Shown one piece after another: positions 3,315-24,951 of a stretch of 48,285 bases of DNA. Position 1 is the first letter of the stretch. Each line of letters opens with the position of its first letter. A model generated the notes under the pieces. The model was given only the letters and a program-made list of their open reading frames with translations. It was not told where the DNA came from and searched no databases. The stretch is from Candidatus Eiseniibacteriota bacterium (GTDB lineage Bacteria; Eisenbacteria; RBG-16-71-46; CAIMUX01), in the NCBI GenBank assembly GCA_903844735.1, contig CAIMUX010000128.1:1-48285 (forward strand). The letters run 5' to 3'. Both the position numbers and the translations under genes were made by a program.

Positions 3315-4442
3315 TCAGAGGTCCGGAAACCTCCTATCCACCTCCAACGGCCGCGGACCGATCGCTTCCCAAGGGCGGAAGAATGCATCCGGAGAAACGC
3401 TCACCCAGGGCGTTGACCGGTGGGTGCGCGCCCAGTCCATCGATATCACCGGATTGGGCAGATCGAATTCCCGGAGATCGTCCAATCCGAGATCGGGCAG
3501 GAAGAACGGCAGCCTGATGCAGATCCGCGGGAAGTACCCGCAAGCACCCGCGCGCGGTCGGGCTGGGGCACGATCTCCCGCCGTCACACTGCGCCAGTGG
3601 ATCAGGGCAGCCGCCCGGTGCGTTCCCGCCCGGCGCGCATACATCCCTTCGATGTCGGTGACGGTAATCAACTCCAGCGTGTCGCCCCGGTCAATGATCG
3701 TCTCGCGCCGGGCTCGGCCGCGCACCTCAGATAGGAAGAGGAGCTCGATCGACGTATCCAAGCGGCTGCTGAACTCGACGCCGAGCGCGGGCTTCGGATC
3801 CGGTGCGTCGTCCTCCCGCACTTGGTCGCTACGGACCCGCACCGGCACACCGCCCAGCATCACCCGCTGGTCAAACGCGCCCCCCCTCGAGGCTACGGTC
3901 CCCTTCGAGGGCACAGTCCCCTCTGAGGGCACGGCGGGCAATGCGTACTGAAGACAGAACCCACCATCACCGACCAGCCCCTGCTCCAGGAAGCGGATCG
4001 GAAAGACGGCCGTGTTCGCGTACCACAAACCGAAAGGGCGCGTAAGGCAGGCCTCATTGACACGATGGACGACCGGGTCGGCGCAGAGATCCGCGAGGTA
4101 GTCGAGGGCGACGCGCGCGCGGAGCATGAAATGGGTCAGGGCCCGGGTCCGGGCGCCCTCGGAGCGGGGATCCCCGAACACCCCGGCCCGGAAGAGACTG
4201 TCAGCACGCTCCCAGGCCGAGTCGTTCGCCGCCGTCATCCGCCGGCCGAGTGAGTCCATCCCCGCCTCGCCGAGTTCCACGGAGGGGGCCGCGGCTCCCG
4301 CGGACCCGAACACCCACACAGACACCAGCAGGGCCCACTGCCAGGCCGTCCGCCGCAACGCCGCAGGTGGACGCCCACCCGACGAGGGCCGGCCCCATCC
4401 ATCCCGGCAGGACAGGCGTCGACTCAACGAACGGGAATCCAT
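3315..4442 (-). CDS. Exported protein of unknown function, coupled to dctM
   Basis: A 375-residue protein with a probable signal peptide (hydrophobic WQWALLVSVWVFGSAGAAA near residues 34-52) and no recognised domain. The start ATG lies inside the end of dctM (19-bp overlap), which argues for translational coupling and membership in the TRAP operon. The mature part is rich in Arg, Asp and aromatic residues. It includes the stretch LTHFMLRARVALDYLADLCADP, a segment HWRSVTAGDRAPARPRAG, and the C-terminus IRLPFFLPDLGLDDLREF followed by about 50 residues. Near the middle, an 18-bp repeat (3889-3942) encodes EGTVPS-like units. I do not recognise the family. Its place as last gene of a TRAP-TatT operon suggests a periplasmic or outer-membrane partner, which is inference. 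Confidence 0.7.
   Translation of the reverse strand: MDSRSLSRRLSCRDGWGRPSSGGRPPAALRRTAWQWALLVSVWVFGSAGAAAPSVELGEAGMDSLGRRMTAANDSAWERADSLFRAGVFGDPRSEGARTRALTHFMLRARVALDYLADLCADPVVHRVNEACLTRPFGLWYANTAVFPIRFLEQGLVGDGGFCLQYALPAVPSEGTVPSKGTVASRGGAFDQRVMLGGVPVRVRSDQVREDDAPDPKPALGVEFSSRLDTSIELLFLSEVRGRARRETIIDRGDTLELITVTDIEGMYARRAGTHRAAALIHWRSVTAGDRAPARPRAGACGYFPRICIRLPFFLPDLGLDDLREFDLPNPVISMDWARTHRSTPWVSVSPDAFFRPWEAIGPRPLEVDRRFPDL
3889..3942 (-). repeat. In-frame 18-bp tandem repeat in the TRAP-linked protein
   Basis: Two good copies and one diverged copy of an 18-bp unit (GAGGGCACAGTCCCCTCT on the + strand) encode PSEGTVPSKGTVAS on the - strand. Like the repeats in the glycosyltransferase and the secreted protein at 44009-45919, the unit length is 18 bp. 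Confidence 0.7.
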
Positions 4443-5737
4443 CGCAACAGGAACAGCGAGAGCTCCGGCAAGTAGGTCACGAACAGCAGGGCAACCAGCA
4501 TCATCAACAGCCACGGAATCACGGCCCGGTACACCCCCACGATCGGCTTGCGGAAACGGAAGGCGGAAATGAAAAGGTTGAGGCCCAGCGGTGGGGTCAG
4601 GTACCCGATCTCGATATTGGTCAGAAAGATGATCCCAAGATGGACCAAGTTGACGTTGTATTCCCGGGCGATCGGCACCACCAGGGGAACCACCACGATG
4701 ATCGCGGAGAAGACATCCTTCAGGCCGCCCATGATCAGCAGCAGGATGTTCAGCATGAGCAGGAAGACGAACCTGCTCTTCACGGCGCCCCGCATCCACT
4801 CCAGCATGGTCATCGGCACGCCGGCGTCGACGATGTAGTTCGTCAGCCCCATGGCCGCACCGAGGATGATGAGGATCGCCCCGACTAAGACCATGCTCTC
4901 GGTGGTGATGGCCGGAAGTTTTCGCAGCGGCACGTCCCGGTGAATGAAAAACTCCACGATGAGCGCATAGAGGGCTGTGCAGGCCGCGGCCTCCATGACC
5001 GTGAGGCGCCCGCTGTAGATCCCGCCGAAGACGATGACCGGGAGAGGCATGTCCCACCCCGCGGCACGGAGGGCGCGGAAGAGCTCGCCGAAGCGGAAGG
5101 GGGTTCGCTGAATCCTCTTCGCCCGCCCCTCGCGCACGCACAGCAGCGACAGGACCAAGATGAGAAACGCTCCGGGCACGATCCCGGCCAGGAAGAGCCG
5201 GTCGACCGAAGGGGACTCGGACGGGGAAAGGTTCAGCCCACCCGCCGCCTGGGTAGCCACAAAGCTGTAAAGGATCAGCGGCAGACTCGGCGGAAAAAGC
5301 AGGCCCAAACTCCCCGAGGTCGTGAGCAGCCCGAGGGAGAACCGCTCGGAGTACCGGTCGCGAAGGAGGGCCGGCATGAGCAAGCCCCCCATGGCCACGA
5401 TGGTGGCGGCACTCGCGCCGGTAAACGCGGTCAGCACGGCCGAGGCCAGCATCGCCACGATGGCCAGCCCGCCGGGCATCCAGCCGAAGGCTGCGTTGGT
5501 CACCCGCACCAGCCGCTGCGGCGTCTTGCCCTCGGCAAAGACATACCCCGCGAAGGTGAAGAGCGGAATCGACACCAGCACCGGGGACCCGGCCAAGCGA
5601 GTCATCTCGGAGATCACCGCGGCGGTGGAAATCCCCTGAAAAGCGAACGCCACGACCGCCGCGGCGGCGAGAACGGTGAACAGCGGTCCGCCGACGACCG
5701 CGTAGAGAACGACCCCGAGGATGGCGAGCAGGCTCAC
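4424..5737 (-). CDS. dctM: TRAP transporter large permease, DctM family
   Basis: A 437-residue polytopic inner-membrane protein with the DctM architecture of about twelve helices. Recognisable family stretches include SIPLFTFAGYVFAEG, AVLTAFTGASAATIVAMGGLLMP, LGLLFPPSLPLILYSF, IIMG-like MGGLKDVFSAIIVVVPLVVPIA, and HLGIIFLTNIEIGYLTPPLGLNLF near the end. It is the ion-coupled translocation subunit that works with the small permease and the soluble binding protein. The ATG overlaps the dctQ stop (ATGA), and the downstream exported gene overlaps its own end by 19 bp. The length is normal for the family. Confidence 0.95.
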   Translation of the reverse strand: MSLLAILGVVLYAVVGGPLFTVLAAAAVVAFAFQGISTAAVISEMTRLAGSPVLVSIPLFTFAGYVFAEGKTPQRLVRVTNAAFGWMPGGLAIVAMLASAVLTAFTGASAATIVAMGGLLMPALLRDRYSERFSLGLLTTSGSLGLLFPPSLPLILYSFVATQAAGGLNLSPSESPSVDRLFLAGIVPGAFLILVLSLLCVREGRAKRIQRTPFRFGELFRALRAAGWDMPLPVIVFGGIYSGRLTVMEAAACTALYALIVEFFIHRDVPLRKLPAITTESMVLVGAILIILGAAMGLTNYIVDAGVPMTMLEWMRGAVKSRFVFLLMLNILLLIMGGLKDVFSAIIVVVPLVVPIAREYNVNLVHLGIIFLTNIEIGYLTPPLGLNLFISAFRFRKPIVGVYRAVIPWLLMMLVALLFVTYLPELSLFLLRWIPVR

Positions 5738-6360
5738 AGGACCCTCTCCCCCACCGCGGGCATCTCATTCTCGTCGGTCGTGATACCGAAGAAAGCGGTC
5801 ACCAGGAAGCGATAGGTCAGCAGGCAGAATCCGAAGAGAAGGATGCTCTGCACCAGCCAGGTGCGCAGCCCGAGAAACGCCTCCTTGCCGAACCCATACT
5901 CCTGCCGCAAGTACGTGTACGCGCCGTTGGCCAAGACCGCGCAGATCCCGGCGGCGATGACACTGACGATCCGCTGGAGAAGAGTGCGGCGTCGCGGGGA
6001 GAGGAAGAGCGCCACGATGTCGATGGCGAGGTGCCGCGCGCGACTCGTGGCGGTCAGCGCCCCGACGAATGCGATCCAAAGGACCAGGTAGCGGGCCATC
6101 GGCTCGGTCCATAGGAACCCCGTGTGCAGGACGTTGCGCATGAAGATCTGCAGCATCGACGCGAGGAGGATACCGAGGAAGAGGACCATGAGACTCCACT
6201 GCTCCAGCACGCGACAAGAGCGGATGAATCGCTGGTGTCCCAGCTTGCGCACCGCGAGAACCCTCAGCAAGAGCGCCGCGCCGGTCAGGCCTGTCAGGAC
6301 CAGCAGGAATGGCACACCAGGGTGGAGCCACGCCAGGGGCACGGGAGGTGCGGAGTTCAT
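5734..6360 (-). CDS. dctQ: TRAP transporter small permease, DctQ family
   Basis: A protein of about 208 residues with four hydrophobic helices, as expected for the DctQ subunit that bridges binding protein and large permease. Family-like segments are LEQWSLMVLFLGILLASMLQIFMRN, FLWTEPMARYLVLWIAFVGA with the conserved Glu-Pro, and RHLAIDIVALFL. The ATG at 6360 is chosen. A GTG at 6369 in the same frame would add three residues. The gene lies between dctP and dctM and shares an ATGA overlap with dctM. It is slightly longer than average because of the N-terminal region. Confidence 0.9.
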   Translation of the reverse strand: MNSAPPVPLAWLHPGVPFLLVLTGLTGAALLLRVLAVRKLGHQRFIRSCRVLEQWSLMVLFLGILLASMLQIFMRNVLHTGFLWTEPMARYLVLWIAFVGALTATSRARHLAIDIVALFLSPRRRTLLQRIVSVIAAGICAVLANGAYTYLRQEYGFGKEAFLGLRTWLVQSILLFGFCLLTYRFLVTAFFGITTDENEMPAVGERVL

Positions 6361-6374
6361 CCCCTGCACGGCCC

Positions 6375-7535
6375 CTACTTACCGGATCCGCCGGGGACCA
6401 CGCCCTCACTGGGGGGACGCCCCCCTGCAGTGGCAGGGTGCGCGGCGCGGTACTCTTTGAGGGCCGCGAGAACCTGATCCAGAGTCGACTGATCGTAGAG
6501 CTTCCCCACCAACTGCGTGCGCACGCTCTCGCCGATCCGATGGAACGACGCAATCTCCTCGGGAGCCGGCGTGACGGCCTTCACGCCGCTCTTCGCGATC
6601 ACCTCCATGCTCTTTCGATCGTCGGCCGCCGTGGCCTCGGTCAACTTGCCGAAATAGGAATCGCAAAGCTCGCGGATCACCGGCTGGGAGGCGGCCGGGA
6701 TCCGGTCCCACGCCTCGTTGGTCACCACCACAGCACCGGTACTGAAGGTCAGCGGAATGTCGGTGGTGTAGGCCGTCCGGGAGAACCACTGCATGCCGAT
6801 GCAGGCGTACGGGGTTATGTAGACGGTGGTGATCAGGCCGGTCTGCAGCGAGGTCAGAACGTCGGTGATAGACAGCGGCACCGGAGCAACCCCGGCGGCG
6901 CGCAGGAACGCCTCGGCCAGTGGATCGCCCTCCCAGAGCCACACCTTCTGCGCCTTCAAGTCGGCAGTGGAGGCCACCGGCGTCTTGCTGTAGAGGTAGA
7001 CGAAGCCCACCTCGGCCCAGCCGACCAGCGTGTAGCCGGCGTCATGCAGCGTCCGCTCGAAGAGGGGATCGAGCTTCTCGTGGACCGCCCGCACTTCGGC
7101 GGCGTCTTGGAAAAGAAACGGGAGCTCCATCACCCGCAGGGAGGGCGCGATCTCCCCGAGCCCCACCCCGGTAAACCCGCCGCCGTGGAGTTGCCCCGCG
7201 CGGATCTTCCGCAGGACGACGAGATCCTCGCCCTGGATTCCCCCGGGGTAGAGGCGCAGTCCCACTTCGCCGTTGGTCTTCTCCCGTATCTGGGCGTCGA
7301 GTTCGCCCATCACGTTCATCCAGGTGGAGCCTTCGGGGGCGAGGGTGGCGATCTTCAGCTCGTACTTTGCTTTCTTCCGCGGCGCCTGGGCCTCGGCCGA
7401 TACAGCCCCCACCACCAGGAACGCACCCAGGCCCGCCGCTAAAGCGAGGCGCCGCCATGCCAAGCCGGTTCGGTCGGTCGCGGATCGGATCGCAGTCGCC
7501 CTCGGCAGGCGGCCACCCGCGTCAGAAATAATCAT
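6375..7535 (-). CDS. dctP: TRAP transporter substrate-binding protein, DctP/TatP type
   Basis: A 386-residue periplasmic binding protein with a signal peptide (hydrophobic core around residues 29-44, cleavage near AEA-QAP). The family opening KIATLAPEGSTWMNVMGELD, the segment GLGEIAPSLRVMELPFLFQ and the later WDRIPAASQPVIREL all match DctP proteins. In classical DctP proteins a conserved Arg in the strand after ADLKG binds the ligand carboxylate. Here that place reads ADLKAQKVWLW with Trp near residue 199. Together with the neighbouring TatT gene, this suggests a TPAT-type system whose ligand need not be an organic acid (inference). The start overlaps the tatT end by 14 bp and has GGAGAG upstream. 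Confidence 0.92.
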   Translation of the reverse strand: MIISDAGGRLPRATAIRSATDRTGLAWRRLALAAGLGAFLVVGAVSAEAQAPRKKAKYELKIATLAPEGSTWMNVMGELDAQIREKTNGEVGLRLYPGGIQGEDLVVLRKIRAGQLHGGGFTGVGLGEIAPSLRVMELPFLFQDAAEVRAVHEKLDPLFERTLHDAGYTLVGWAEVGFVYLYSKTPVASTADLKAQKVWLWEGDPLAEAFLRAAGVAPVPLSITDVLTSLQTGLITTVYITPYACIGMQWFSRTAYTTDIPLTFSTGAVVVTNEAWDRIPAASQPVIRELCDSYFGKLTEATAADDRKSMEVIAKSGVKAVTPAPEEIASFHRIGESVRTQLVGKLYDQSTLDQVLAALKEYRAAHPATAGGRPPSEGVVPGGSGK

Positions 7536-8499
7536 CGCGTCTCTCCATCAACCAGCCGGCCTTCGCCCTGGCGATCTGGTTCAGTAGTTGAAACTCCGGG
7601 TAGAGGTTATCCGGGGCACCGAGGACCTCCTTCAGGTTCGCCTCGAAGCAGGCCGTATCCATCATCTGCCGACAGTAGTACTTGGCGCATAGAACCTGAA
7701 AGAGGAGAAGCTTTCTCCCTGAAATCCGCAGCGCCTCCTCGAAATGCGCCCGTCCCTGTTCCGGGTCTCCACCGGCTATCCTGGGACGGAGCGTGAGAAT
7801 CGTTCCCTTCATGACATGCGGCATGCCTTGGAAATACTCCGGGTTCAACTCGAGAATCCGGTCCAGGAACGCCTCGATGCGAGGGAGATCGGCTACGGCT
7901 TGCGGATCGGAGACGCTGAGACTGACCAGACTCGCCCAGTTGGCCACGGTCCAGAAGAGGAGAGGTACACTCTCCCTCGGTACCCGCCGCAACGCCTCGG
8001 GTTCTGGCATCGCGCCCCCCTCGGTGTCACGGAACCAGCCGTAGCGTTGGAGTCCTTCGCGGCCGAGGCGCAGCCCTTCCCGGTAGGCCTCGCGGGCCCG
8101 CGGAGGGTCGGTGTCCTCCAGGAACCCGAAACCATAGGAATAGAACATCTGAACCGTGAGGACTCGGATCTCCTCCCGGCCCGGATCGGATTCGCAGAGC
8201 CCGCGCAGGAGGAGGAGGTTCGACGGAATCCCATCCCGCACCAGCAAGAGGTCGCGACTCCGGTATGTCGCGTCCACCGTCTCCTGGAGAATCGGGACCA
8301 TCGATCGAACCGCGATCTTGCCGGTGATCCCGCATCCTCCGAGCAGAACGGCCAGGCACGGCACAATCAGTAGGCGGGGCCGGGGCCGCGCCCGTGGGGA
8401 GATCCGCTGGGACCAGTCCTGGCGCACTCGCGGGGGATCCCAGGCTCGCGCCCCCGCCATGGGCGCACGGCGGGTGGATGTTTGGTTCGTCGTCTGCAT
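7522..8499 (-). CDS. tatT: TRAP-associated TatT lipoprotein
   Basis: A lipoprotein of up to 325 residues with lipobox LGGC (Cys56 from the chosen ATG). The 42-residue Arg-rich stretch before the hydrophobic core is long, so an internal start such as the ATG at 8460 is possible. The mature part is all-helical and TPR-like, with FGFLEDTDPPRAREAYREGLRLGREGL, LFWTVANWASLVSLSVSDP, FLDRILELNPEYFQGMPHVMKG and AHFEEALRISGRKLLLFQVLCAKYYC. These match the TatT family, whose Treponema pallidum member Tp0956 forms a complex with its DctP-like partner. First gene of the leftward TRAP operon, divergent from the SUMF1-type gene with only 55 bp between starts. Confidence 0.85.
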   Translation of the reverse strand: MQTTNQTSTRRAPMAGARAWDPPRVRQDWSQRISPRARPRPRLLIVPCLAVLLGGCGITGKIAVRSMVPILQETVDATYRSRDLLLVRDGIPSNLLLLRGLCESDPGREEIRVLTVQMFYSYGFGFLEDTDPPRAREAYREGLRLGREGLQRYGWFRDTEGGAMPEPEALRRVPRESVPLLFWTVANWASLVSLSVSDPQAVADLPRIEAFLDRILELNPEYFQGMPHVMKGTILTLRPRIAGGDPEQGRAHFEEALRISGRKLLLFQVLCAKYYCRQMMDTACFEANLKEVLGAPDNLYPEFQLLNQIARAKAGWLMERRDDYF

Positions 8500-8554: not shown

Positions 8555-10610
8555 ATGGATTCGGATCGCGCTGGTCCACCCCACGTCACCAGCGTCGCCG
8601 CCGCCCAGCAATCCGGGACGAAGCTCGTCGATGTCACCTACGACCTCTACGATGCCGACGGCCACGCGATGACGGTGGCGCTCTACGTCTCGCCTGACGG
8701 AGGGGTGAGCTTCCCGATTCAGGGCGTGACGGTCTCCGGGGATGTCGGTGCGGGCATCCTGAGCGGGACGGGCCAGCACATCGAGTGGGACGCGGGGGCC
8801 GACTACCCCGACCACGTGGGAGAGACATTTGCCCCCAAGGTGACCGCCGACGATGGGCAGGCCCCGACCGGGATAGTCTGGATCCCGGCGGGCAACGTCC
8901 GGATGGGCCAGACCGGGATTGCCACGCCCGTCCACGACTTCTATGTCGATGGCTTCTACATCGACCGCCATGAAGTCTCGAACGCCAAGTACAAGGCGTT
9001 CATCGATGCCGGGGGGTACACGAACGCGGCGTACTGGAACTCGGCCGGCTGGACCTGGAGGGTGGCGAACAGCCTCACGCTGCCAGCATACTGGAATGAC
9101 CCGACCTACCACGGCGGCGGATCGCCGGTTACGAGTCGTTTCCCGTCAACGGTGTCTCCTGGTGGGAGGCCGATGCCTGCTGCCGCTGGGCGGGTGTGTG
9201 TCTGCCGACCGAGGCGAAGTGGGAGAAGGCCGCGAAAGGGGGCTGCGAGACGCACGGAGACCCCGAAACGTGCGATGCTTCCGACACCCCGACCTACCCC
9301 TGGGGAGAGGGGATCACCGGTCCGCAGGCCAACTACTACCAGAGCGGCGATCCGTACGAGAACAACGGCTGGACGACCCCGGTGGGCTGCTACGACGGCA
9401 CCAACCACGGCGGCCACCAGACGATCAACAGCCCGAGCCCCTACGGTCTCTATGACGTGGCGGGGAACGTCTGGGAGTGGTGCAGCACGAAGTACGCGGC
9501 CTACCCGTATAACCCGAATGAAGGCCGGGAGAACCCTCCGGTGTCCTACTCTGAATGCTGCCGGGTTCTGCGCGGCGGCTCCTGGGACGACGACGACGTC
9601 TACGGCCTCCGATCCGCCTACCGCAGCTACAACGGCAATCCGCTCGGTCGCACCATCGTCATCGGTTTCCGTCGTGTCAGAACCGGTTCCTCCGCGGTCG
9701 GGTGGGGGTGGGGCCGCTGTTTCAATTGGGCACGCGATTCGCCGGGGCCTGTTGCCACGACGACTACACCTGCACCTTCGTCCCCGAGGCAGAGTGTCTA
9801 AGCCCGAGTGTCTGGCACGGCGAATGGACGACGTGCTCGCCGAATCCCTGCTTCCCCGATGGCAAGTCGTATACGAATTGCCGCATCATCTCCGACTCGG
9901 GCATCCTGTTTGCCGAGAGATACTCCACAGAAGCCCCTCCCGATACGGCGGGCTTTCGGATCTTCTACGACTCCACTCGCGTGGAAATCACCAGGGATCC
10001 GGACACTCGCTTCTACATCTCGGGACGGCCGGACAGTCTCTCCCCGTGGGTCTGCGATGACGTGTTCTTGATCCATGATGACGCCACCAGTGAGGATGTG
10101 GCCCCCCTGTTGGGCCAGAGCACCACTATTGACACCAACTTCCCGCTCTGCGAGCCGATCGATTCCATCATCACGACCATCCCGGCGGGCGAGGTGACGT
10201 CCTATTTGCCGATGGGCACGAGCTGTGTCACCTTCAAGTTCGCAGACACCCAGCGCGAGATCTTCGGGAACACGGCGATCTACCTGCCGCGGCTCACCGA
10301 TCCGACCATCGGCGTGCCCGATGCAGCGCTCGATTTCCAGAAGATCCGAGTGACGCCCAATCCCACCGGCAGCGCGACGACCGTGGATCTGTGTTCCGGC
10401 AACGGCGGGCCGCATACCCCGACGATCTATGCGCCGGACGGCCGGGTGATCCGCACGTTTCCGCAGGTGCTCGTGGCGAGAGGCCAACGGCAGGCGTGGA
10501 TTTGGGACAGCAAGGACCAGGCGGGCCGGGCGGTGAGCCCCGGCGTGTACTCCTGTTCCGTCCAGACGCCGGCCGGGAGGCTGTCGGCGCGGGCGTTGGT
10601 GCTTCGATAA
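8555..10610 (+). pseudogene. Secreted-type SUMF1-domain protein with FlgD C-terminus, two frameshifts
   Basis: One gene spread over three frames. Frame one (ATG 8555, GGAGAAGG upstream) gives a beta-sandwich segment (GTKLVDVTYDLYDADGH) and the start of a SUMF1/formylglycine-generating-enzyme-like domain (IVWIPAGNVRMGQTG, VDGFYIDRHEVSNAKYKAF). Near 9113-9125 the frame slips. The next frame carries AGYESFPVNGVSWWEADACC, VCLPTEAKWEKAAKGG, DVAGNVWEW and LRGGSWDDDD. A second slip in a G-rich run near 9700-9720 leads to GACCHDDYTC and a C-terminal FlgD-like domain (VTPNPTG ... SPGVYSC) ending at 10610. Both slips equal the loss of one base. The SUMF1 end reads GFRRV rather than GFRC, so formylglycine-forming activity is unlikely. 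No signal peptide is seen at the chosen start. It could be a real pseudogene or carry assembly errors. Confidence 0.75.
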
Positions 10611-20139: not shown

Positions 20140-22080
20140 ATGAGAACACGGGTAGAAATCGAATGCGGAAGAGGGGTTGCGTGGTACCGGGCGGGCATTT
20201 GCCGAAGCGACAGGAACGGCTGGTCACGCACGCTGCTCCTCGTGAGTCTCCTGGTAGCGCTGCCCGGGACCGCGTTCGGACAGGCGTCGAACCAGATCAC
20301 GCTGGTCAACCCTGACTCCGCACCGCAGGGAACAACCGGCCTTCTCGTGACTTTTACGCTCGACACCGACGTCCCGCCCGCGCCGCCCGCCGGGACGCTG
20401 ATCCTCTCGAAAGCCGGGGTGTTCACGGTGACCGCCGTCGGGAACCAGCCTCCCGGCATCACGCAGCATCCCCAGTCGCAGACGGTCCCTCCCGGAGGTT
20501 CCGCGACCTTCTCGGTCTCGGCCTCCGGGACCGCTCCCCTCCACTATCAGTGGCAGAAGGCCGACAGCGACATCTCCGGAGCCACGGCGAACTCCTACAC
20601 GGTCAGTCCCGCGGCCGAGAGCGATGCCGGGAGCTACCGGTGCGTGGTTACCAATGATTACGGCACGGCGACCTCGAACGAAGCGGTGCTCACGGTGGCC
20701 GAGCTCCCCACGGACGGCTATCCGATCATCGACACCGGCCAGATCAAGTGCTACAGCGATGCGACGGAAGTCACCTGCCCGCAGGCGGGTCAGGCCTACT
20801 ACGGCCAGGACAGCCAGTGCCAGGGGCACCAGCCGTCCTTCTCGCTCAGCGGCGACGGCCTGACGGTTCAGGATGCGGTGACCGGCCTCACCTGGCAGCG
20901 CAGCCCGGACACGAACGGCGACGGTACGATCACCTCGACCGACAAACTCACCTGGATCCAGGCCCAGGCACGCCCGGCGATCCTGAACGCCGCCAATTAC
21001 GCGGGCTACGGTGATTGGCGCCTGCCGACGATCAAGGAGCTCTACTCGCTGATCGATTTTCGGGGGACCGATCCCAGTGGCTTGAGCGGCGACGACACCT
21101 CCGGCCTCACGCCTTTCATCGACACGAACTACTTTGGGTTTGCGTACGGGCAGACGAGCGCGGGAGAGCGCATCATCGACTCGCAGTATGCGTCCTCGAA
21201 CCTTTACCTCGGCCCGAACTGGGGCGGCGAAGGGGGCAAGCTCTTCGGCGTCAACTTCGCCGACGGCCGGATCAAGGGTTACGGCCTCACTCTGGCCGGT
21301 TCGGAGAAGACGTTCTTCGTCCAGTGCGTGCGCGGGAACACGAGCTACGGGATCAACAACCTCGCGGACAACGGCGACGGAACGATCACCGACCGCGCCT
21401 CGGGACTCATGTGGCCCAAGACGGACAACGGCTCGGCCCTCACCTGGCCCGAGGCGTTGGCCTCGGTGCAGGCGCAGAATGCAGCGGGCTACCTCGGCCA
21501 CGACGACTGGCGCCTTCCGAACGCCAAGGAACTCCAGAGCATCGTCGACTACACGCGGGCTCCCGACGCCGTCGATCCCTCGCACCAGGGACCCGCCATG
21601 GATCCGGTCTTCACCTGCACGCAGATCACGAACGAAGCCTGCGCCGCCAACTATCCCTGGTACTGGGCGGGAACGACGCACGGCAACTATTCCGGGACAG
21701 GCACCGGGGGCATCTACGTCTGCTTTGGGCGGTCCATGGGATACATGGGCGGGTGGACCGATGTCCACGGTGCCGGCGCCCAGCGGAGCGATCCGAAGAG
21801 CGGCAGCCTCAGCAACTATACGCACGCCGACTGCGGCTACTACCACAGCATCGCCCCGCAGGGGGACGCGATCCGGATCCACAACTACATCCGTCTCGTA
21901 CGGGATGCGGAGCCATCCACGGACGTGGGTGAGGATGGACGCGACTCCATCCGGCCGGGGAACGGACTCACCCTGCGTGCCCTACCGAACCCTGCGGTTG
22001 GAAGCGTCCAGATCGGTTTCGTTCTTCCGATCGCCGGGACGGCACGGGTGGGGATTCACGACGCGACCGGACGCAAGTGA
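20140..22080 (+). CDS. Secreted Ig-like/DUF1566 protein with frameshifted FlgD C-terminus
   Basis: A 646-residue frame with a signal peptide (TLLLVSLLVALPGTAFGQ around residues 31-48). An Ig-like domain follows (PGITQHPQSQTV to SYRCVVTNDYGTA), then two DUF1566 (Lcl C-terminal) domains. Each DUF1566 copy has its hallmark, DWRLPTIKELYSLI in the first and DWRLPNAKELQSIV in the second. A calcium-binding-like loop DTNGDGTITSTD lies in between. The C-terminal FlgD-like domain starts ALPNPAVGSVQIGF and reads GIHDATGRK before the stop at 22078-22080. In the next frame the expected continuation VNLLDAGAVQAGAHQLPW to AGAYYVRLES ends at a stop at 22233-22235. Loss of one A in the AAG/GTG junction explains this. 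Without it the sorting domain is truncated by about 50 residues. GGGGAGG precedes the ATG. Confidence 0.85.
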   Translation: MRTRVEIECGRGVAWYRAGICRSDRNGWSRTLLLVSLLVALPGTAFGQASNQITLVNPDSAPQGTTGLLVTFTLDTDVPPAPPAGTLILSKAGVFTVTAVGNQPPGITQHPQSQTVPPGGSATFSVSASGTAPLHYQWQKADSDISGATANSYTVSPAAESDAGSYRCVVTNDYGTATSNEAVLTVAELPTDGYPIIDTGQIKCYSDATEVTCPQAGQAYYGQDSQCQGHQPSFSLSGDGLTVQDAVTGLTWQRSPDTNGDGTITSTDKLTWIQAQARPAILNAANYAGYGDWRLPTIKELYSLIDFRGTDPSGLSGDDTSGLTPFIDTNYFGFAYGQTSAGERIIDSQYASSNLYLGPNWGGEGGKLFGVNFADGRIKGYGLTLAGSEKTFFVQCVRGNTSYGINNLADNGDGTITDRASGLMWPKTDNGSALTWPEALASVQAQNAAGYLGHDDWRLPNAKELQSIVDYTRAPDAVDPSHQGPAMDPVFTCTQITNEACAANYPWYWAGTTHGNYSGTGTGGIYVCFGRSMGYMGGWTDVHGAGAQRSDPKSGSLSNYTHADCGYYHSIAPQGDAIRIHNYIRLVRDAEPSTDVGEDGRDSIRPGNGLTLRALPNPAVGSVQIGFVLPIAGTARVGIHDATGRK

Positions 22081-22497
22081 ACCTACTCGATGCCGGCGCC
22101 GTCCAAGCAGGTGCGCACCAACTGCCGTGGGCCGGTTCGGACGGCTCGGGGCACCAGGTCCCGGCGGGGGCCTATTATGTCAGGCTGGAGAGCACAGTCG
22201 GCATACGGAGTCAGAAGATCACCCTCGTGCGATAGGAACGCGGCCCGTCCGGTGGACGGTTCCGACGCGGCAAGGTGCCAGATCTCCGCGTGGGCCTCCG
22301 GTCGCAGCCCCCCGTCCCTCGCGCACAGTCCATCCTTCAGATCGCCCTCGCCGGTGTCAAGCCCGGCTGCCGGTGTTCGGGACAACCGCCTACTCTCATC
22401 AGCCTCGCATCTAAGCATCGGAAACGAGAATAGACGGCACCATGAACGAGCTGACCCGGACCCGGACCGGCCCACGATGGAGCACGGAGGGAGAGTG

Positions 22498-24951
22498 TTG
22501 CGGACAAGAACGGCCAGACGACGGCCGGAGGCACAATGGCCAATGGTCCCCCCTGCACCCGGCAGGCCGGCCGCAGCACTCGCGCTGGTCTTGGCGTTCT
22601 GGTGCGCCATCGGAACACACTCTGCCGGGGCCGCTCAGGACTCCCCGATCGCCCCGGGCGTCGGACGGGTCGAAGGGCTTGTCGTCGACGCGAACACCCG
22701 GGCCCCCCTGGTCGGTGCCAGCGTCACGCTGGTCGGCACCCGCCGGGGAGCCTTTACGAAGGCCGACGGAACCTATGGGATCGACAACCTGTCTCCCGGC
22801 ACCTACCGGCTCCAGTTTTCGTCGATCGGGTATCAGGTCGAGACACGGACCGACATCGTCGTCTCTGCCGGATCTCCGACGCGTGTCGATGAGGAGTTGA
22901 TCCCTTCCGCCGTCCAACTCGAATCGATCACCGTCCGACCCCAGTTTTTCGCGGAAGAGCTGGCGGCGCCATCCAGCACGACCACCCTGCGACGGGAAGA
23001 GATCCGCCGATTTCCCGGCGGTTTCGAAGACGTGGTGACGACCGTCACCGCCCTTCCCGGCGTGGCGCAGGTAGGCGGCGGGGGGCGCAACGACCTGATC
23101 GTGCGCGGGGGCGGTCCTTCCGAGAACCTGTTCGTGGTAAATGGCCTCGAGGTCCCGAACATCAATCACTTTACGACCCAGGGGACCTCCGGTGGAGCGC
23201 TGAGCTTCATCAACCTCGACTTCGTGGACCGCGTGGAGGTCTCGACCGGCGGGTTCGGTGCTCGCTATGGCGACCGGATGTCGTCCGTCTTGGACCTCGG
23301 CTTCCGCCCGGGACGAAGCGATCGCCTCGGGGGAAGAGCCACCCTCTCCGCCACCCAGTACGGCCTTGATCTGGAGGGGCCGATCACCCCGAACGGGAGT
23401 TTCGTGGCCTCGGCCCGCCGCAGCTATCTTGACCTGATCTTCAAGGCTGCCGGCGTGCCATTCGTCCCCGTTTACACCGACTACAACGTATTCGCCGATG
23501 CGGCTCTTTCCCGCACGAACCGCCTCTCGCTGTTGGGCCTCGCGGCCCTCGATCACGTCGAAACCGATCGCAGCGACGCTAAGAAGCGACGGACGATCGC
23601 GAGCCTCCTGGACAACAATCAGCGGCAACTCATCCTGGGCGCCCGGCTCCGGCACCAGCTGGCGGACGGGTACGCGCAGGCTGTCGCCGGGATCGATCGG
23701 ACCCGCTTCGATCTCAGCCAGGCTGACTCCAGCATGTTCCCCGTGGAGTTCTTTCGCACCAGCGCCATCGAGGGCGGGACATCGCTGCGGTGTGAGATTA
23801 CCAAACGAGTTGGCCTGCATCTCCTGGCATCGGGCGGAGGGGGTATCAAGTGGGTCGGCACGGACAACACGACCTCATTTGCCGACACCGTCTTCGACTC
23901 CAGCGGTCGGCGTGTCGCCCGGGACAGCCTGGGGCTGCCGTCCTCCCTGCGGCTCAACCGGATCGACCGCAAGCTGTCACTGTGGGGAGAGACGGAAACG
24001 GACCTCTCACCCCGGTGGCGCCTTACCCTCGGACTACGGGCCGACGGGTTCTCCGCCCTGCGGCACCCGTGGTCCCTCGCGCCGCGCGCCGCCCTCTCGC
24101 ATCGTCCCGGCGATCGGGTGAAACTGCAGGCCAGCATCGGACGCTACGGGCAAGCCCCCGCCGGCGTATGGCTCGTCAACCCGCGCAACCGTGATCTCAA
24201 GGCGCTGCGCTGCGACGTGGGAATTCTCGGAACCGAGATTATTCTGCGGGACGACACCTCGCTCCGCCTGGAAACCTACTACAAGCGCTACCGCGATCTG
24301 CCAGGCGGCACGGATCCCGGCTCCGATTCGACCCGCGCGACCGACTATCTCGTGCTGACCAACACCGGTGTGGGCTTCGGCGGGAGGGAGGACAACTTCC
24401 GCTCCTTCGGGTACATCGATCTCGTCTCGCGCGCAAGCGGCGAGGCGTTTGGAGCGGAGATTCTATTGCGAAAGAAACTCTCCGAGATCCCCTGCTACGG
24501 GCAGCTCAGCGTGGGCATCGGCCAGAGCGGATACCGCGCCCTGAACGGCAGATGGTATCCGGGGCAATACGACCAGCGCTTCATCCTGGGGATCTCCGGG
24601 GGATATGTATTCAACCCGCGGTGGGAATTCAGCTCGCGCTTCCGGCTGATCACGGGCGCCCCGTACACCCCGATCCGCGACCCGCGGACGAATCCGGTCA
24701 GCCCGGGCGAGACCCAGGTCCTCCCCGGGGAATACCTGACGCGGCGGCTCGGCGTGTCCCATCAGCTGGATTTGCGGGTTGATCGACGCTGGAACTTCGC
24801 ACGCCGGGCACTGGTCGCCTTCCTCGACATCCAGAATGTGTACAACTTGAAGGTCCCCCAGATCCCGAGCTGGAGCTTCGCCGATCAGAAGATCGAGGAC
24901 CGCAACACGATCGGGATCCTGCCGACGGTCGGGATCAGGGCGGAATTCTGA
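22498..24951 (+). CDS. TonB-dependent outer-membrane receptor with carboxypeptidase-regulatory-like domain
   Basis: About 817 residues. After a signal peptide (AAALALVLAFWCAIGTHSAGA) comes a carboxypeptidase-regulatory-like domain (GRVEGLVVDANTRAPLVGAS to GTYRLQFSSIGYQ). The plug domain follows (EEIRRFPGGFEDVV, NDLIVRGGGPSENLFVVNGL, GALSFINLDFVDRVEVSTGG, GARYGDRMSSVLDL). The barrel ends with the short C-terminal strand GIRAEF. Such receptors import bulky ligands using TonB energy. The TTG at 22498 is chosen because GGAGG lies seven bases upstream. In-frame GTG 22495 and ATG 22477 are alternatives. The frame is open to 22090, but that part overlaps the frameshifted end of the upstream gene. 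No TonB, SusD or transporter gene is adjacent, so the ligand is unknown. Confidence 0.88.
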   Translation: MRTRTARRRPEAQWPMVPPAPGRPAAALALVLAFWCAIGTHSAGAAQDSPIAPGVGRVEGLVVDANTRAPLVGASVTLVGTRRGAFTKADGTYGIDNLSPGTYRLQFSSIGYQVETRTDIVVSAGSPTRVDEELIPSAVQLESITVRPQFFAEELAAPSSTTTLRREEIRRFPGGFEDVVTTVTALPGVAQVGGGGRNDLIVRGGGPSENLFVVNGLEVPNINHFTTQGTSGGALSFINLDFVDRVEVSTGGFGARYGDRMSSVLDLGFRPGRSDRLGGRATLSATQYGLDLEGPITPNGSFVASARRSYLDLIFKAAGVPFVPVYTDYNVFADAALSRTNRLSLLGLAALDHVETDRSDAKKRRTIASLLDNNQRQLILGARLRHQLADGYAQAVAGIDRTRFDLSQADSSMFPVEFFRTSAIEGGTSLRCEITKRVGLHLLASGGGGIKWVGTDNTTSFADTVFDSSGRRVARDSLGLPSSLRLNRIDRKLSLWGETETDLSPRWRLTLGLRADGFSALRHPWSLAPRAALSHRPGDRVKLQASIGRYGQAPAGVWLVNPRNRDLKALRCDVGILGTEIILRDDTSLRLETYYKRYRDLPGGTDPGSDSTRATDYLVLTNTGVGFGGREDNFRSFGYIDLVSRASGEAFGAEILLRKKLSEIPCYGQLSVGIGQSGYRALNGRWYPGQYDQRFILGISGGYVFNPRWEFSSRFRLITGAPYTPIRDPRTNPVSPGETQVLPGEYLTRRLGVSHQLDLRVDRRWNFARRALVAFLDIQNVYNLKVPQIPSWSFADQKIEDRNTIGILPTVGIRAEF

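What the first reader, a model, noticed from the sequence alone, without database searches (positions are those of the whole stretch)
3315..8499. TRAP-TatT transporter operon with a coupled exported protein of unknown family
tatT, dctP, dctQ and dctM overlap or nearly abut, and a fifth gene overlaps dctM by 19 bp. TatT-linked TRAP systems are known mainly from Treponema (Tp0956/Tp0957). The fifth protein has a signal peptide and no recognised domain, so it may be an extra periplasmic or outer-membrane component.
Basis: partly seen in the sequence, partly recalled or inferred. Interest (0 to 1): 0.6.

Follow-up and report, generated by a model that had tools for sequence, protein, structure and literature searches.

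The report
Uncharacterised fifth protein of TatT-TRAP operon
A bacterial uptake-pump operon of the TatT-TRAP kind carries a fifth, exported protein of a previously unnamed family that sits in the same place in a second, unrelated phylum, so it is probably a real extra part of the pump, although what it does has not been shown.

Summary
tatT, dctP, dctQ, dctM and a fifth gene (ORF5, 3315-4442, minus strand) overlap or abut, and the fifth overlaps dctM by exactly 19 bp. The window is from a Candidatus Eisenbacteria genome. ORF5 matches no Pfam, NCBIfam or PDB family. A profile nevertheless finds true relatives in 15 of the genomes searched, from four phyla. In 8 of the 15 the gene lies directly after dctM on the same strand: all 3 Eisenbacteria genomes of the window's family, and all 5 held genomes of a second, unnamed phylum. 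In a ninth it lies beside a tatT-dctP pair of a different lineage. All 11 ORF5 genomes tested for TatT have it (about a quarter of sampled genomes outside Eisenbacteria do). None of 40 further TatT loci carries ORF5 after dctM, so it is a clade-specific accessory, not a core TatT component. Copies outside the operon carry an N-terminal CxxC motif (9 of 9 readable); operon copies lack it (0 of 8), which suggests specialisation. Two low-confidence structure models show a curved beta-sheet core; the fold is unresolved. Best reading: a soluble periplasmic accessory of a hydrophobic-ligand TRAP system. Coupling is well supported; the ligand-handling role is inference.

The parts
7522..8499 (-). tatT: TRAP T-component, predicted lipoprotein (LLGGC lipobox), TPR-like
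   Evidence: PF16811 E 1.1e-56; PDB relatives 8g52 E 6e-12 and Tp0956/TatT 3u64 E 2.5e-5
6375..7535 (-). dctP: TRAP substrate-binding protein of the TatP(T) kind; Trp at the position of the usual organic-acid arginine
   Evidence: PF03480 E 9e-36; Tp0957/TatP(T) 4di3 E 4e-21 is the second-best PDB hit, and the aligned KxR is KVW here
5734..6369 (-). dctQ: small TRAP membrane subunit
   Evidence: PF04290 E 9e-24
4424..5737 (-). dctM: large TRAP membrane subunit
   Evidence: PF06808 E 4e-73, TIGR00786 above its cut-off
3315..4442 (-). ORF5: exported protein of an unnamed family, overlapping dctM by 19 bp
   Evidence: relatives in 15 genomes; no known family
3883..3932 (-). 18-bp tandem repeat inside ORF5, an in-frame insert absent from the aligned relatives

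Best explanation
The locus is a TatT-type (TPAT) TRAP import operon with a fifth gene that encodes a soluble, Sec-exported periplasmic protein of an unnamed family. Shown here: the five-gene order and overlaps, the TatT and TatP(T)-like identity of the first two genes, the export-type N-terminus, conservation of the fifth gene directly after dctM in two phyla, and genome-level co-occurrence with TatT. Inferred: translational coupling gives the fifth protein together with the transporter. Because TatT and TatP(T) handle hydrophobic or amphipathic ligands (Tp0956/Tp0957; the sterol-binding relative BstC), the fifth protein most likely works with them in the periplasm, by binding or presenting such a ligand or by holding the TatT-DctP complex together. 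DctP would then pass the ligand to DctQ/DctM for import driven by an ion gradient.
For: Gene anatomy. TatT and DctP hit Tp0956/Tp0957 structures and DctP lacks the usual organic-acid arginine. dctM-ORF5 arrangement in 3 of 3 family members and 5 of 5 genomes of another phylum. On the ORF5 tree operon copies fall in two separated groups; well-supported branches force at least two changes. ORF5 is beside a tatT-dctP pair in G195, whose DctP falls outside the group holding the operon DctPs. All ORF5 genomes tested have TatT: 10, G386 locally; outside the phylum 6 of 6 against 83 of 338, hypergeometric 2e-4 by genome, 0.014 by family. The CxxC motif splits exactly by operon membership. One unlinked relative (G009) stands divergent from an RND transporter that resembles HpnN/BstA lipid transporters.
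Against: No functional or structural annotation: both models are of low confidence (mean pLDDT 55 and 58) and no fold match is convincing. Forty-three of 47 phylum genomes lack it, including TatT-bearing order mates, and 40 further TatT loci do not carry it, so TatT systems usually work without it. Six ORF5 genomes show no TRAP linkage within the fetched distance. Genome counts are not independent events: there are about four lineages.
Confidence: 0.5

Rival explanations
1. ORF5 is a periplasmic enzyme that modifies the transported compound before or after binding. It is coupled to the operon for the pathway rather than as a part of the transporter.
For: Invariant polar residues (N73, H275, Y303, D322) and a GxHxxxAxxxW motif; other TatT operons are followed by exported enzymes, for example a PNGase F-like protein (L168) and an S41 peptidase (L133).
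Against: No enzyme family is matched at any useful level; several invariant residues are G, P and W, typical of structure.
Confidence: 0.2
2. ORF5 is an envelope protein with its own role (stress, redox or metal) that was twice placed behind dctM for co-expression and has no contact with the transporter.
For: Seven or more copies have no TRAP neighbour within the fetched distance; these carry an N-terminal CxxC where the N-terminus is readable, and in G463, G388 and G219 thioredoxin- or peroxiredoxin-like genes lie near.
Against: All 11 genomes tested carry TatT, the operon form is conserved in all genomes of two clades, and ORF5 also adjoins a tatT-dctP of another lineage.
Confidence: 0.22
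3. ORF5 is an outer-membrane or surface-exposed component that admits the ligand.
For: The modelled core is antiparallel beta; TatT lipoproteins are thought to act near the outer membrane (PMC5812351).
Against: A helical N-terminal part precedes the strands in both models, and the C-terminus is a conserved PD motif rather than an aromatic barrel signal. No barrel predictor was run.
Confidence: 0.07
4. Chance adjacency or a spurious ORF.
For: None beyond the missing family match and the 18-residue insert.
Against: Cross-phylum homologues with 23 (nearly) invariant positions and a repeated operon position.
Confidence: 0.01

Closest known systems
TPAT (TatT-associated TRAP transporter) of Treponema pallidum, Tp0956/Tp0957
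   Same: TatT T-component lipoprotein and TatP(T)-like DctP encoded side by side, DctP without the usual arginine, followed by the TRAP membrane subunits (PMC5812351)
   Different: dctQ and dctM are separate genes here and a single tatQM gene in Treponema; a fifth exported protein is added, of which the papers read make no mention
BstA/BstB/BstC sterol transport set of Methylococcus capsulatus
   Same: BstC belongs to the TatT superfamily and binds a hydrophobic ligand (PMC10942540); the RND protein beside one ORF5 relative (G009) resembles BstA and HpnN
   Different: The Bst set uses an RND pump and a phosphonate-type binding protein, not TRAP; ORF5 has no counterpart there; the RND match is far below the BstA cut-off
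DUF3108 proteins found beside TatT-TRAP genes in other phyla
   Same: Occupies the slot right after dctM in G053 and G047, and the slot before tatT in G374 and G100
   Different: No homology to ORF5: profile comparison probability 0.1%

Membership tests
TatT-TRAP (TPAT) transporter | T-component protein of PF16811 | tested here: met
   E 1.1e-56, 192 bits against a cut-off of 26.5
TatT-TRAP (TPAT) transporter | T-component is a lipoprotein | tested here: met
   Lipobox LLGGC in the translated sequence; lipidation itself not tested
TatT-TRAP (TPAT) transporter | Substrate-binding protein related to TatP(T), without the organic-acid arginine | tested here: met
   4di3 and 3u65 are hits 2 and 3; KVW where other TRAP binding proteins have KIR
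TatT-TRAP (TPAT) transporter | DctQ and DctM membrane subunits in the same operon | tested here: met
   PF04290 and PF06808
TatT-TRAP (TPAT) transporter | TatT-DctP complex with aligned hydrophobic pore and cleft | not testable with these tools
DUF3108 (PF11306), for ORF5 | Profile similarity | tested here: not met
   No Pfam match for the 11 members scanned; hhalign probability 0.1% against the TatT-linked DUF3108 set
START / Bet v 1 (SRPBCC) fold, for ORF5 | Helix-grip fold | tested here: inconclusive
   Z 2.2 to 3.0 to PR-10 proteins for one model, mixed beta folds up to Z 4 for the other; both models of low confidence

The most novel reading that the evidence does not exclude
ORF5 defines a five-gene TRAP class in which a third soluble periplasmic protein receives a hydrophobic ligand and hands it to TatT and DctP. 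It would have been recruited from a CxxC-bearing free-standing family that lost the motif each time it joined the operon.
Probability: 0.25. Interest if true: 0.65.

Novelty: new variant of a known kind. Interest (0 to 1): 0.45.

Why it matters
How TatT-TRAP systems get water-poor ligands across the periplasm is an open question, and no partner beyond TatT and DctP is named in the papers read here. A protein family tied to these operons in two unrelated phyla gives a concrete candidate to test. The loss of the CxxC motif in operon copies offers a natural contrast between the free-standing and the transporter-bound form.

Tried and rejected
(1) Family assignment of ORF5 by Pfam, NCBIfam and PDB, single sequences and profiles of up to 16 members: nothing. 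(2) Two structure predictions from 4-row alignments: low confidence; Foldseek gave no match below E 0.27; VIA-align listed PR-10/Bet v 1 proteins at Z up to 3.0 for one model, and OspA, PUR-alpha, avidin and fatty-acid-binding folds up to Z 4.0 for the other. Treated as undecided. (3) Homology to DUF3108, which fills the same slot in other phyla: rejected. (4) A weak extra hit in G037 (E 0.0145): the frames there read as a DnaK-like and a glycosyltransferase-like protein, rejected. (5) The 18-residue insert as a genome-wide mobile repeat: the pattern occurs nowhere else in the genome. (6) Conserved linkage of ORF5 to MMPL/RND transporters: seen in G009 only. (8) PDB 8g52, the best TatT hit: no paper on it found in the library.

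Full report
What is there. The whole window is contig C128 of a genome of 5.4 Mb in 142 contigs. Two of the three named records of its nearest ORF5 relatives are Candidatus Eisenbacteria MAGs (the third is titled only 'bacterium'), and these share its family or order. On the minus strand lie tatT 7522-8499, dctP 6375-7535, dctQ 5734-6369, dctM 4424-5737 and ORF5 3315-4442. Neighbouring genes overlap by 14, 4 and 19 bp or are 5 bp apart, which is what translational coupling looks like. ORF5 encodes 375 residues with a hydrophobic export segment and an A-x-A type end, and no later hydrophobic stretch that looks like a membrane helix. The start codon is the least certain point.

The first four genes are a TatT-type TRAP transporter. 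TatT is far above the Pfam cut-off and matches the T. pallidum Tp0956 structure. DctP's second and third best PDB hits are Tp0957, TatP(T). In that alignment ordinary TRAP binding proteins read KIR where this DctP reads KVW, so the arginine that usually holds a carboxylate (established knowledge of SiaP-type proteins) is missing, as it is in Tp0957. This agrees with the published view that such systems move hydrophobic compounds (PMC5812351), and with the sterol-binding TatT relative BstC (PMC10942540).

ORF5 belongs to no named family. A single-sequence search of 99 genomes found good relatives only in Eisenbacteria, and a pattern scan of 84,980 species gave three loci. A profile of four members, run on 385 genomes, then found strong relatives in six genomes outside the phylum (E 1e-61 to 1e-111). 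Follow-up in the phyla of these genomes added two genomes in one phylum (5 of 5 positive), none in another (2 of 3 positive) and three in the last (4 of 80 positive). In all, 15 genomes from four phyla carry the family; the three phyla outside Eisenbacteria are unnamed in the collection used.

Genomic position was read from fetched DNA. tatT-dctP-dctQ-dctM-ORF5 on one strand is present in the window, G002, G112 and G383 and G386. G385 shows dctP-dctQ-dctM-ORF5 on a contig that begins in dctP. G253 shows dctQ-dctM-ORF5 on one contig, and tatT-dctP running off the end of another. In G001 one contig ends in the last codons of dctM and another begins inside ORF5, with the downstream gene order of its relatives. 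G001 and G253 are therefore inferred joins. In G003 the order runs dctM, dinB, DUF72; in G001 it is ORF5, a dinB-like gene, DUF72: the neighbourhood is the same with and without ORF5.

Elsewhere ORF5 is not in the operon. In G195 it lies on the opposite strand 1.6 kb from tatT-dctP, separated by a mannosyltransferase-like gene. In G219 one copy is about 12 kb from a full tatT-P-Q-M set and another is on a second contig. In G009 it stands between a divergent HpnN/BstA-like RND transporter and metH. G333, G388, G461 and G463 show no TRAP gene within the fetched distance.

Co-occurrence. All ten ORF5 genomes searched for TatT have it, and G386 has it locally; G385, G388, G461 and G463 were not searched genome-wide. 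TatT occurs in 107 of 385 genomes overall; outside the phylum my count is 83 of 338. Six of six has a probability of 2e-4 if genomes are taken as independent, and 0.014 for the three families they belong to. The converse does not hold: 40 further TatT loci were read, and none has ORF5 after dctM; most are followed by unrelated genes. ORF5 is therefore a lineage-specific accessory. Two other loci carry DUF3108 in the same slot and two carry it in front of tatT, so TatT operons seem to collect accessories of different kinds. DUF3108 and ORF5 are not related by profile comparison.

Evolution. On the ORF5 tree the operon copies fall in two separated groups, and well-supported branches force at least two changes of state. 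The G195/G333 branch lies inside the Eisenbacteria family group, while G195's DctP does not group with the operon DctPs. ORF5 thus met a tatT-dctP pair of another origin. That placement has a long branch and moderate support.

Conserved features. Over 17 or 18 rows, 23 positions are invariant or nearly so, including N73, G273-x-H275, W283, Y303-x-P305, L315-P316, D322-L323-R324 and P373-D374. Between the signal and the first helix all nine non-operon copies with a readable N-terminus have CxxC; none of the eight operon copies does (two Eisenbacteria copies keep only the second Cys). On the tree this means several parallel losses. This was noticed after the fact and needs an independent sample.

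Structure. Two AlphaFold2 runs on 4-row alignments gave mean pLDDT 55.1 and 58.5, with a helical N-terminal part and a core of several antiparallel strands. Fold searches gave no reliable match. A ligand-binding beta fold is compatible but not shown.

Mechanism. Shown: operon structure, transporter class, export signal, recurrent linkage, co-occurrence. Inferred: that ORF5 acts in the periplasm with TatT and DctP, most simply as a ligand carrier or an assembly partner. The main rivals are an enzyme acting on the substrate, and an independently acting envelope protein that is merely co-expressed.

Verdict. The finding is real and more conserved than a lone hypothetical gene would suggest. It is a variant of a known transporter kind with a new component family. 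Function and fold stay open, hence the moderate interest score.

Noticed in passing
window 3883-3932: 18-bp tandem repeat adds 18 in-frame residues to ORF5 between two predicted strands; absent from the aligned relatives, and the pattern is found nowhere else in the genome.
   Followed up: partly
window about 8600-10610, plus strand: A formylglycine-generating-enzyme-like (PF03781) protein divergent from tatT appears to be spread over more than one reading frame, suggesting frameshifts or assembly errors.
   Followed up: partly
L053 11021-12481, L054 4953-5564, L150 10081-11595, L164 467-1972: DUF3108 proteins (three of them with TPRs) sit directly after dctM or directly before tatT in TatT-TRAP loci of other phyla: another candidate accessory of these transporters.
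   Followed up: partly
ORF5 family N-termini; for example L076, L080, L082, L129: An N-terminal CxxC motif occurs in all readable non-operon copies and in no operon copy.
   Followed up: partly
L129 4663-5181, L127 5796-6925, L080 11920-12456: Thioredoxin- or peroxiredoxin-like genes lie near several CxxC-bearing free-standing ORF5 copies, judged from sequence motifs only.
   Followed up: no
L011 1278-4049: HpnN/BstA-like RND transporter divergent from the G009 ORF5 relative; a possible lipid link, but seen in one genome only.
   Followed up: partly
L009 5368-7460: DprE1- and DprE2-like genes lie directly downstream of ORF5 in G002, on the same strand.
   Followed up: no
window 20140-22080 and 22090-24951: A protein with an Ig-like and an Lcl C-terminal domain lies directly before a TonB-dependent receptor.
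   Followed up: no
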